A stretch of DNA of 64,000 nucleotides from Candidatus Nitrosopumilus sp. SW (GTDB taxonomy: Archaea > Thermoproteota > Nitrososphaeria > Nitrososphaerales > Nitrosopumilaceae). Where the stretch lies: the NCBI RefSeq assembly GCF_006740685.1, contig NZ_CP035425.1:1279687-1343686 (forward strand). Direction: 5' to 3'. The first letter of the stretch is position 1. Each line of letters opens with the position of its first letter. Below the pieces are notes generated by a model, which ran no database searches, was not told where the DNA came from, and saw only the letters and a program-made list of their open reading frames with translations. The translations under genes were made by a program, and so were the position numbers. Positions 9,178 through 11,530 of this stretch are shown one piece after another.

Positions 9178-10494
9178 TTACCATCTACTACGGCCGCCGT
9201 AACTATTTCTGTTACCGCCTCTATCATTATATCTTCGTCTACCGCCTCTATCATCTCTTGAATCTCGTCCACCTGATCTTCCATATCCTCCAGAACGACC
9301 TCCTCTTGAATAGTTTGATCTTGATTGACCTCCGTATCTTCTTGATGGCATTTGTCTTTTTAGAGGATCTGGAATTGAAATTTCTATTCCCATCTCTTCA
9401 TTCAAATCTTTGATAGGGACTTTGATTTGTCGTTTAATAAGATTCCAATCTCCTACTGATGAATATGAAACAAATGTAATTGCTTTACCCTTTGCTCCTG
9501 CTCTTGCAGTTCTTCCAATTCTGTGAAAATATGCCATTTCTTGATTTGGAACATCGTAATTAATTACCAACTCTACTCTTGGAACATCTATGCCTCTTGA
9601 TGCAACATCTGTTGCCACTAGAATGTCTGCCTTACCACTACGGAATTTTCCCATTGATTGCTCTCTTCTGTGTTGTGACATGTCTCCTTCTATTGCTACT
9701 GCATCAAATTTTTCTTGGTGTAAGAATTTTGCAACATCTCTAGTTCTATATTTTGTTGAGCAAAACACAATAGATTGGCCTTTTACTGGTTTGATAAAAT
9801 CAATTAGATACTTGAATTTGTCCCTGTCTTTTATGACTAGATATGATTGATCAATTCCTTCTCCGCTGAGATCATCTGCATCTAACAAGAATTGTTTTGG
9901 GTTTTTCAAATATTCCTCAGACAATCTAAGAATTTCAGTTGGCATTGTTGCTGAAAACAACGACATAACTCTGTCTTCTGGTGCTAAATCTAAAATAAAT
10001 GAAATATCATCAACAAATCCCATATCTAACATTGTGTCAGCTTCATCCAAAACAATATGTGAAACGTCTCTGAGTTCTATTGATCCTCGTTTGAGATGAT
10101 CAATTAATCTACCTGGTGTTGCTACAACAATTTCCACTCCTCTTTCTAGAGCGTCTAATTGAAGTCCCATTCCTTGTCCTCCATAAACTGTTGCTACTCT
10201 AATTCCAGTGTATTTTCCAAATTTTTTAATCTCATCTGTAATCTGCATAGCAAGTTCTCTTGTGGGGGCCATGATCAAACCCTGAATTCCGTTTTTTGGT
10301 TGAATTTCTTGCAGCATTGATAAGGAAAATGCTGCAGTTTTACCCGATCCTGTATGTGCTTGTCCTACAACATCTCTTCCTGTAAGTAATACTGGAATTA
10401 CTGCCTCTTGAATTGGAAATGCTTCTTCAAATCCAAGGTCTTTAATTCCTTTTAGTATGTCTTCTTTTAATCCTAATTCTTGAAATTTTGTCAT
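9178..10494 (-). CDS. DEAD-box ATP-dependent RNA helicase with RGG-type tail
   Basis: A 438-residue DEAD-box helicase. Visible motifs are the Q motif (FPIQ), Walker A AHTGSGKT (residues 46-53), PTRELA, DEAD, SAT, and in domain 2 the ATDVASRGID and HRIGRTARAG motifs. The last 45 or so residues are a Gly/Arg/Ser/Tyr-rich tail with RGG-like repeats, typical of RNA-binding extensions that promote annealing or condensates. It should unwind structured RNA, for example in ribosome assembly or at low temperature. The leader upstream of the ATG contains two mutually exclusive hairpins. Confidence 0.96.
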   Translation of the reverse strand: MTKFQELGLKEDILKGIKDLGFEEAFPIQEAVIPVLLTGRDVVGQAHTGSGKTAAFSLSMLQEIQPKNGIQGLIMAPTRELAMQITDEIKKFGKYTGIRVATVYGGQGMGLQLDALERGVEIVVATPGRLIDHLKRGSIELRDVSHIVLDEADTMLDMGFVDDISFILDLAPEDRVMSLFSATMPTEILRLSEEYLKNPKQFLLDADDLSGEGIDQSYLVIKDRDKFKYLIDFIKPVKGQSIVFCSTKYRTRDVAKFLHQEKFDAVAIEGDMSQHRREQSMGKFRSGKADILVATDVASRGIDVPRVELVINYDVPNQEMAYFHRIGRTARAGAKGKAITFVSYSSVGDWNLIKRQIKVPIKDLNEEMGIEISIPDPLKRQMPSRRYGGQSRSNYSRGGRSGGYGRSGGRDSRDDRGGRRRYNDRGGNRNSYGGRSRW

Positions 10495-10512
10495 TTTATT
10501 ATCTTCTCTTTA

Positions 10513-10545
10513 GCAATGACGAAAAGCTCATTGCCAGCCGTCATT
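10513..10545 (-). promoter_or_regulatory. Alternating hairpins in the DEAD-box helicase 5' leader
   Basis: Two 7-bp stems compete for the same segment. On the plus strand, 10513-10519 (gcaatga) pairs with 10528-10534 (tcattgc), and 10515-10521 (aatgacg) pairs with 10539-10545 (cgtcatt). Both cannot form at once. The element lies 19-51 nt before the helicase ATG, and a TATA-like box at about 10576-10583 would place the transcript start near 10550, so the whole leader is essentially this element. This is the layout of an RNA switch or thermosensor, or of autoregulation by the helicase. Function is inferred. Confidence 0.5.
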
Positions 10546-10575
10546 ATTCCGATGCGTAAAGTTACAGTTTAGGTC

Positions 10576-10583
10576 TAATAAAC
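10576..10583 (-). promoter_or_regulatory. Putative TATA box of the DEAD-box helicase gene
   Basis: On the minus strand this reads GTTTATTA, a reasonable archaeal box A. At the usual 24-27 nt spacing it would give a transcript starting near 10550, just before the paired hairpin element and about 55 nt upstream of the ATG. Confidence 0.4.
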
Positions 10584-10595
10584 GCTTGTTATTTT

Positions 10596-11408
10596 TTATG
10601 CCTCTAGTTGTGCATCAATAACTTTTTTGAAACTTTCAAAGGGCTGTGCACCTTTTAGTTCTACATACCCTATCTCGTCATTTCCTATAAAAAATCCTGG
10701 GGTTCCTGTGACATCATAACTTCTACCATCATCAAGATCGTTTCTTATCTCTTCGATGTATTTTCCACTTATGAGACACTCATCAAATGTTTCTTGTTCT
10801 AGTTGTATTTGAGATGCATATTGACTAAACACAGATAACGCATCAACTGTTTCTAGATTATTCCATTGATTTTGATTATCAAATAATATGTCGTGCATCG
10901 CTTTGAATTGTCCTTGCTCATTTGCACACTCTGCTGCTACTGATGCAGGAAGTGCATTTGGATGAATACTTTGTATTGGAAAGTCTCTAAAGACTAGTTT
11001 CACTTTACCTTGATCAATATATTCTTCTAAAAGCAATGGAAGTGTCTGCACATGGAATCGTGCACAGAATGGACATTGAAAATCAGAAAATTCTATTATT
11101 GTTATTGGTGCATCTGGATTTCCAATTACTGGGTCATCATCTGCTGAAATTTTTACAGGCTGTGATGGTTGATTTGTTGGTAGTCTGTTTTGTAACATTT
11201 TGAGTTCTAGTTTTGCAATTGCATCATCAAGATCTTCTTGTGAAATTTGATTTGAATTCATATTTGAAACATACATTCCTGCAAAAAATGCTGCAGCACC
11301 CACTGCAACAATTAATCCAATTATTAGGCCATTTGATTTTGATTTTTTTTGATAATTTTCATCTTGTTTGATCTCATTATCTTCAAAACTCATGTATGAT
11401 TGCTCCAA
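10596..11408 (-). CDS. Membrane-anchored DsbA-family thiol-disulfide oxidoreductase
   Basis: A 270-residue protein: charged N-terminus, one membrane anchor at about residues 28-47, a linker, then a DsbA/thioredoxin-fold domain. The active site is CPFC (Cys112 and Cys115) in an FSDFQCPFCARFH context, and the cis-proline loop is TGTPGFF near residue 240. Together these indicate a thiol oxidoreductase acting outside the membrane, introducing or isomerising disulfides in exported proteins such as the copper proteins encoded elsewhere in this window. DsbA-like proteins are common and often multiple in thaumarchaea. Confidence 0.93.
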   Translation of the reverse strand: MEQSYMSFEDNEIKQDENYQKKSKSNGLIIGLIVAVGAAAFFAGMYVSNMNSNQISQEDLDDAIAKLELKMLQNRLPTNQPSQPVKISADDDPVIGNPDAPITIIEFSDFQCPFCARFHVQTLPLLLEEYIDQGKVKLVFRDFPIQSIHPNALPASVAAECANEQGQFKAMHDILFDNQNQWNNLETVDALSVFSQYASQIQLEQETFDECLISGKYIEEIRNDLDDGRSYDVTGTPGFFIGNDEIGYVELKGAQPFESFKKVIDAQLEA

Positions 11409-11455: not shown

Positions 11456-11530
11456 AGCCAATGATGGGATCTGAACCCATGACCTTTCGCTTACAAGGCG
11501 AATGCTCTAGCCAGGCTGAGCTACATTGGC
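11456..11530 (-). tRNA. tRNA-Thr (TGT)
   Basis: The minus strand folds into a standard cloverleaf without intron. The 7-bp acceptor is GCCAATG/CATTGGC, the anticodon stem TTCGC/GCGAA closes the loop CTTGTAA with anticodon TGT, and the T loop is TTCAGAT. The discriminator is T, which is usual for archaeal tRNA-Thr, and CCA is not encoded. A TATA-like box lies about 30 nt upstream. Confidence 0.97.

What the first reader, a model, noticed from the sequence alone, without database searches (positions are those of the whole stretch)
10513..10583. Mutually exclusive hairpins in the leader of a DEAD-box helicase gene
Two 7-bp stems share the same strand segment (tcatt), so only one can form at a time. 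The predicted leader (from about 10550 to 10494) is nearly the whole switch and ends 19 nt before the ATG. DEAD-box cold-shock helicase genes in bacteria often use long regulated leaders. An archaeal helicase controlling or being controlled by such RNA, or a cold sensor, would be new.
Basis: partly seen in the sequence, partly recalled or inferred. Interest (0 to 1): 0.6.

Follow-up and report, generated by a model that had tools for sequence, protein, structure and literature searches.

The report
Conserved RNA hairpin before archaeal helicase
Right at the predicted start of the messenger RNA for a cold-shock-type RNA helicase, ammonia-oxidising archaea of the family Nitrosopumilaceae keep a small RNA hairpin that has been preserved through paired mutations, so the helicase is probably controlled through its own message, although the proposed two-way switch between hairpins is only weakly supported.

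Summary
The two overlapping 7-bp stems are really there, and each arm combination is rare in the genome. Comparison makes the observation solid. The same leader precedes this CshA-like DEAD-box helicase in all 28 genus orthologs first examined and in many further genera of the family Nitrosopumilaceae. Conservation is nearly absent in the promoter-to-start spacer (38% identity), then jumps to 87% at the predicted transcription start, above third codon positions (61%). The outer stem (AAUGACG/CGUCAUU, 'stem B') is kept by compensatory changes on four of six pairs (0 of 1000 tree-based simulations reach it jointly), and distant genera carry an extra inserted pair. Stem A (GCAAUGA/UCAUUGC) is lost in some genera and its pairing is not significant (P 0.07-0.17). 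Folding favours B in 68 of 73 distinct leaders. Most likely a post-transcriptional cis-regulatory hairpin, perhaps autoregulatory. Long leaders of archaeal cold helicase genes were known; this element has no Rfam match.

The parts
9178..10494 (-). DEAD-box RNA helicase gene, 438 aa, CshA-like, with an RG-rich C-terminal tail
   Evidence: ORF; Pfam DEAD and Helicase_C; best NCBIfam model CshA, below its cut-off
10572..10590 (-). Conserved promoter block AACAAGCGTTTATTAGACC (BRE-like plus TATA-like box)
   Evidence: near-identical upstream of the genus orthologs; 95% mean pairwise identity in 28; only exact match of its core in the genome
10575..10582 (-). TATA-like box TTTATTAG
   Evidence: sequence; first T lies 32-37 nt before AATAAT in 117 leaders, 34 here
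10551..10571 (-). Unconserved spacer between promoter and predicted transcription start
   Evidence: 38% mean pairwise identity, length nearly fixed
10549..10550 (-). Predicted transcription start (purines of ATC(G/A)GAATAAT)
   Evidence: inferred from TATA spacing and from where conservation restarts; not mapped experimentally
10539..10545 (-). Stem B, 5' arm AATGACG
   Evidence: compensatory changes with 10515-10521
10515..10521 (-). Stem B, 3' arm CGTCATT (shared with stem A over 10515-10519)
10525..10535 (-). Inner helix of state B, GGC-AATGA-GCT, stacked in stem B
   Evidence: single-sequence folds; relatives AAGC/GCUU, AGGU/ACUU, AGCC/GGCU; inner-helix pairing not significant on its own
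10528..10534 (-). Stem A, 5' arm GCAATGA
   Evidence: present here and in most relatives, lost in L119 and in the genus g28 leaders read
10513..10519 (-). Stem A, 3' arm TCATTGC
10495..10512 (-). Purine-rich linker to the start codon, mostly unpaired
   Evidence: 77% mean pairwise identity; median unpaired probability of the start region 0.75
10542..10544 (-). Upstream AUG inside the 5' arm (17-codon frame overlapping the helicase start here)
   Evidence: frame not conserved; AUG absent from 10 of 73 distinct leaders

Best explanation
The region is an mRNA leader of about 57 nt that begins with a conserved two-part RNA hairpin (outer stem B plus a short inner helix), followed by a mostly unpaired purine-rich stretch and the helicase start codon. 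It most likely acts in cis after transcription: the folded hairpin sets the translation or decay rate of the mRNA, and the helicase (or another RNA-binding protein) binding or opening it, for example at low temperature, feeds back on helicase synthesis. Shown by comparison: conserved single-copy leader tied to this gene, pairing of stem B. Inferred: that it is transcribed from 10550, that it regulates, the direction of the effect, and who recognises it. Stem A is a minor alternative fold in most species.
For: All 28 genus orthologs recovered have it and the 9 genus genomes without an ortholog in that search give no model match; 76 of 95 genus genomes have a strong match, one per genome apart from a contaminated assembly, G104. 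Convincing matches in a 250-genome draw from the order all lie in the same family, over many genera; fetched divergent ones lie upstream of the helicase ortholog, except three weak ones, L125-L127; diverged hairpins are visible at the same place in genera g28 and g31. Hairpin 87% identical while the spacer just upstream is 38% and third codon positions are 61%. Stem B: 96.8% of cells paired against a tree-based null of 91.2% (P 0.007), four pairs with double changes against 1.4 expected (P 0.01), both together 0 of 1000. Examples: G-C to A-U (L020, L068, L072), A-U to G-C (L021), U-A to C-G (L081, L100, L132), C-G to U-A (L132), one extra pair inserted in distant genera, GACGGA/UCUGUC. In L020, L068, L072, L081 and L100 the changes that delete the upstream AUG are compensated on the other arm, so the stem, not the AUG, is kept. 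B is the favoured fold in 68 of 73. The element stays with the helicase when the upstream gene differs.
Against: No transcript start, probing or expression data. An untargeted covariation scan found no significant column pair, since the leaders are very similar. RNAalifold on the 28-sequence alignment chose stem A, though with no double changes. The hairpin masks neither the start codon nor an obvious Shine-Dalgarno sequence, so how it would control translation is not evident. The feedback and temperature steps have no direct evidence.
Confidence: 0.5

Rival explanations
1. True bistable switch: stems A and B exchange, driven by temperature, helicase or ribosome.
For: Both pairings are possible in most leaders; triple change G/G/C to A/A/U in L068 and L072 keeps both stems; no A-C mismatch at columns 20 and 44 of the genus alignment, where G-C, G-U and A-U all occur; near balance in the window species, L002 and L010.
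Against: A-stem pairing not beyond a tree-based null (P 0.07 to 0.17); A absent in L119 and in g28; B favoured by a median 5.6 kcal/mol at 25 C; in L028 and L096 A dominates instead, so the balance is not conserved.
Confidence: 0.15
2. A constitutive 5'-terminal stabiliser or ribosome standby structure: the hairpin guards the mRNA end or keeps the start region open, and is not responsive.
For: It starts a few nt from the predicted 5' end and leaves the start region mostly free.
Against: Does not by itself explain why only this gene in the genome carries this element; not otherwise excluded.
Confidence: 0.2
3. A DNA operator: the inverted repeat just downstream of the promoter binds a transcription factor, possibly one specific for this gene.
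For: Inverted repeats can covary as DNA dyads too; the site lies within 70 bp downstream of a strongly conserved promoter.
Against: Only copy in the genome, so no regulon; arm sequence changes when the partner changes, also by G-U steps and by a paired insertion, which is expected of RNA more than of a protein reading base identity; arm spacing varies.
Confidence: 0.1
4. A translated upstream reading frame (leader peptide) starting at 10544 controls the helicase.
For: AUG in 63 of 73 distinct leaders; in the window species the frame overlaps the helicase start.
Against: Length and sequence of the frame are not kept, and the AUG is lost in several lineages, in L020, L068, L072, L081 and L100 with the pairing restored on the other arm.
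Confidence: 0.03
5. Terminator or 3'-end structure of the upstream DsbA-like gene.
For: The gene upstream runs in the same direction and ends at 10596.
Against: No terminator-like site; the element stays with the helicase where other sequence lies upstream (L081, L093, L110 onward).
Confidence: 0.02

Closest known systems
5' UTR of the cold-inducible DEAD-box helicase TK0306 (Tk-deaD) of Thermococcus kodakarensis (PMC4247193; Shimada et al. 2009, cited there)
   Same: archaeal DEAD-box helicase gene with a non-trivial leader; cold-inducible gene
   Different: 158/159 nt and containing a tRNA-Lys; here about 57 nt with a hairpin and no tRNA; the two leaders were not aligned
Low-temperature-regulated deaD of Methanococcoides burtonii (Lim et al. 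2000, cited in PMC4695842)
   Same: archaeal DEAD-box helicase gene expressed more in the cold
   Different: leader details not read here; methanogen, not ammonia oxidiser; no structure comparison made
Autoregulated crhR helicase of Synechocystis (PMC3485376)
   Same: helicase that controls its own expression in response to temperature
   Different: bacterial; control shown experimentally through transcript and protein half-lives; no leader comparison made
Alternative and masking 5' UTRs in cold-adapted Methanolobus psychrophilus (PMC5378194)
   Same: archaeal leaders with predicted stems tied to temperature
   Different: works by alternative start sites and masked ribosome-binding sites; here the start region is mostly unmasked and one conserved promoter is seen

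Membership tests
Conserved structured 5' leader (cis-regulatory RNA element) | pairing kept by compensatory change in relatives | tested here: met
   stem B, joint 0 of 1000 tree-based simulations; but an untargeted scan was not significant
Conserved structured 5' leader (cis-regulatory RNA element) | fixed association with one downstream gene | tested here: met
Conserved structured 5' leader (cis-regulatory RNA element) | transcribed as part of the mRNA, and changes its expression | not testable with these tools
   start predicted from TATA spacing only; no expression data
Two-state RNA switch | both exclusive helices under selection | tested here: inconclusive
   B met; A P 0.07-0.17 and lost in some genera; RNAalifold on the genus alignment nevertheless picks A
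RNA thermometer | ribosome-binding site or start codon masked by a stem that melts | tested here: not met
   start region mostly unpaired at 25 C, median 0.75
Riboswitch | ligand-binding aptamer coupled to an expression platform | not testable with these tools
   no Rfam match
Known Rfam family | score at or above a family's gathering score | tested here: not met
   none at 10400-10700; best is a sub-threshold CRISPR-repeat match on the other strand
TK0306-type leader | 158-159-nt leader containing a tRNA | tested here: not met
   no tRNA in the leader; paper PMC4247193
Cold-shock DEAD-box helicase CshA | score above the NCBIfam CshA cut-off | tested here: not met
   best model, 430 bits against a cut-off of 646

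The most novel reading that the evidence does not exclude
The leader is a genuine two-state RNA switch, with the helicase itself or cold shifting the balance between stems A and B, tuned differently in each species: a feedback switch on an archaeal RNA helicase gene.
Probability: 0.15. Interest if true: 0.75.

Novelty: new member of a known kind. Interest (0 to 1): 0.5.

Why it matters
I found no described structured leader in ammonia-oxidising archaea in the library searched, and these are among the most abundant microbes in the sea. A family-wide hairpin tied to a single cold-shock-type helicase gene gives a small, testable handle on post-transcriptional control in this group, and a candidate for a new RNA family.

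Tried and rejected
Single-sequence folding energy as evidence: not exceptional. Rfam: no match. Further copies of the element in front of other genes: model R1 gives one match in the own genome at E<=1; of the seven weak second matches in relatives, at least five overlap or sit in unrelated open frames and none precedes a second helicase. Upstream reading frame: not conserved. Terminator: none. Untargeted covariation scan: nothing significant on such similar sequences; a targeted tree-based test was used instead, so the test was chosen after the first gave nothing, and its P values should be read with that in mind. RNAalifold prefers stem A on the genus alignment and a partial stem-B fold on the 73-row alignment; I give more weight to per-sequence folding and compensations, but this disagreement is real. 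Within the genus alignment alone the pair-count tool gives two double changes in B against 0.2 in shuffles, and none in A. Homologous leader outside the family: none recognisable by eye in eleven order-level orthologs, L029, L030 and L227-L235. Literature on transcription starts in Nitrosopumilus: none found in the held library.

Full report
What was checked. The window is part of a 1.5-Mb single-contig genome whose nearest named relatives are Nitrosopumilus genomes. The helicase gene lies on the minus strand at 9178-10494, with DEAD and Helicase_C domains and CshA as best NCBIfam model though below its cut-off. A published survey lists CshA-type cold-shock DEAD-box proteins in all Nitrosopumilales of its set (PMC8397731).

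The observation. Both 7-bp stems exist as described and share TCATT at 10519-10515. Two such overlapping stems did not appear in 4000 shuffles of the segment, but similar pairs occur in about 0.8% of overlapping 71-nt windows of the 64 kb. The energy of the single sequence is ordinary. So one sequence alone would not justify a claim.

The relatives. One search found clear orthologs in 28 of the 37 genus genomes searched, own genome included; all 28 have an almost identical arrangement: the promoter block AACAAGCGTTTATTAGACC, an unconserved spacer of nearly fixed length, then ATC(G/A)GAATAATGACG...CGTCATTGC, a purine-rich linker and the ATG. Mean pairwise identities are 95% for the promoter, 38% for the spacer, 87% for the hairpin, 77% for the linker; third codon positions of the helicase (22 sequences) 61%. 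Conservation restarts where a TATA-like box predicts transcription to begin, which argues for selection on the RNA rather than on the intergenic DNA as such. This start is inferred, not mapped.

Spread. A covariance model of the 28 leaders matches 76 of 95 genus genomes, one strong match per genome except one contaminated assembly. In a 250-genome draw from the order its convincing matches all lie in the same family. Fetched divergent members sit directly upstream of the helicase ortholog, apart from three of the weak ones, L125-L127. In genera g28 and g31 the model fails or is marginal, but the orthologs have a hairpin of the same kind at the same place. No homologous leader was recognisable by eye in orthologs from other families.

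Which stem. In a hand-segmented alignment of 125 leaders, 73 distinct, the outer stem B shows double changes on four of six pairs: U-A to C-G, G-C to A-U, A-U to G-C and C-G to U-A. Distant genera carry an additional G-U pair inserted on both sides. Against a null that redistributes each column's own substitutions on a tree of the helicase gene, stem B is more often paired (P 0.007) and more often doubly changed (P 0.01), with no simulation of 1000 reaching both; without the eight most distant leaders the joint value is 0.001. Stem A reaches only P 0.07 (all) or 0.17 (without the distant ones), and the inner helix 0.08 or 0.18. The null is my own implementation, the tree rests partly on short gene fragments (276 nt at least), the segmentation was made with stem B in mind, and an untargeted scan found nothing significant, so this is good but not overwhelming evidence.

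Energetics. At 25 C, folding from the predicted start puts stem B above 50% in 68 of 73 leaders and stem A in five. The gap is a median 5.6 kcal/mol at 25 C but 2.3 in the window species and about zero in L010. Against this, RNAalifold on the genus alignment picked stem A, and a triple change in L068 and L072 keeps both stems, so stem A cannot be dismissed.

What it is not. The upstream AUG in the 5' arm opens frames of different length and is lost in 10 of 73 leaders; in the near relatives among them (L020, L068, L072, L081, L100) the change is matched on the other arm. No terminator-like site. No Rfam match. The inverted repeat is unique in the genome, which disfavours a regulon operator. 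Start codon and linker are mostly unpaired, so it is not a classical thermometer.

Mechanism. The best reading is a 5'-terminal hairpin that sets translation or decay of the helicase mRNA, with feedback by the helicase as an attractive but unshown step. Helicase autoregulation is known in Synechocystis (PMC3485376), and the cold-inducible archaeal helicase gene TK0306 has a long leader of another kind (PMC4247193). The helicase's RG-rich tail is compatible with RNA binding but proves nothing.

Verdict. Observation confirmed; conserved structured leader well supported; switch weakly supported; function inferred. A new, small member of the known kind 'structured leaders of RNA-machinery genes'. 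My confidence that it is a conserved leader RNA hairpin is about 0.85; that it works by feedback or temperature-dependent control of the helicase mRNA about 0.5 at most, which is the figure given for the best explanation.

Noticed in passing
L118, L120-L122 and L132, upstream of the promoter: In several distant genera what looks like the 3' part of a tRNA lies directly upstream of the helicase promoter; in the window tRNA-Thr (11456-11530) lies one gene further up. Thermococcus TK0306 has a tRNA inside its leader (PMC4247193).
   Followed up: no
window 10596-11408: DsbA/thioredoxin-like gene just upstream in the same direction; its end is kept upstream of the promoter in most genus members but not in distant ones.
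   Followed up: partly
L028, L096: In this lineage stem A is extended and becomes the dominant fold (97% and 85%), the reverse of most relatives.
   Followed up: partly
L068, L069 (genome G104): Two different copies of the leader in one assembly listed at 8% contamination, probably two strains; L069 has a broken stem B (GAAG).
   Followed up: no
G000:C1:1445548-1445569 (L238): A second exact GCAATGA...TCATTGC inverted repeat in the genome, outside the window.
   Followed up: no
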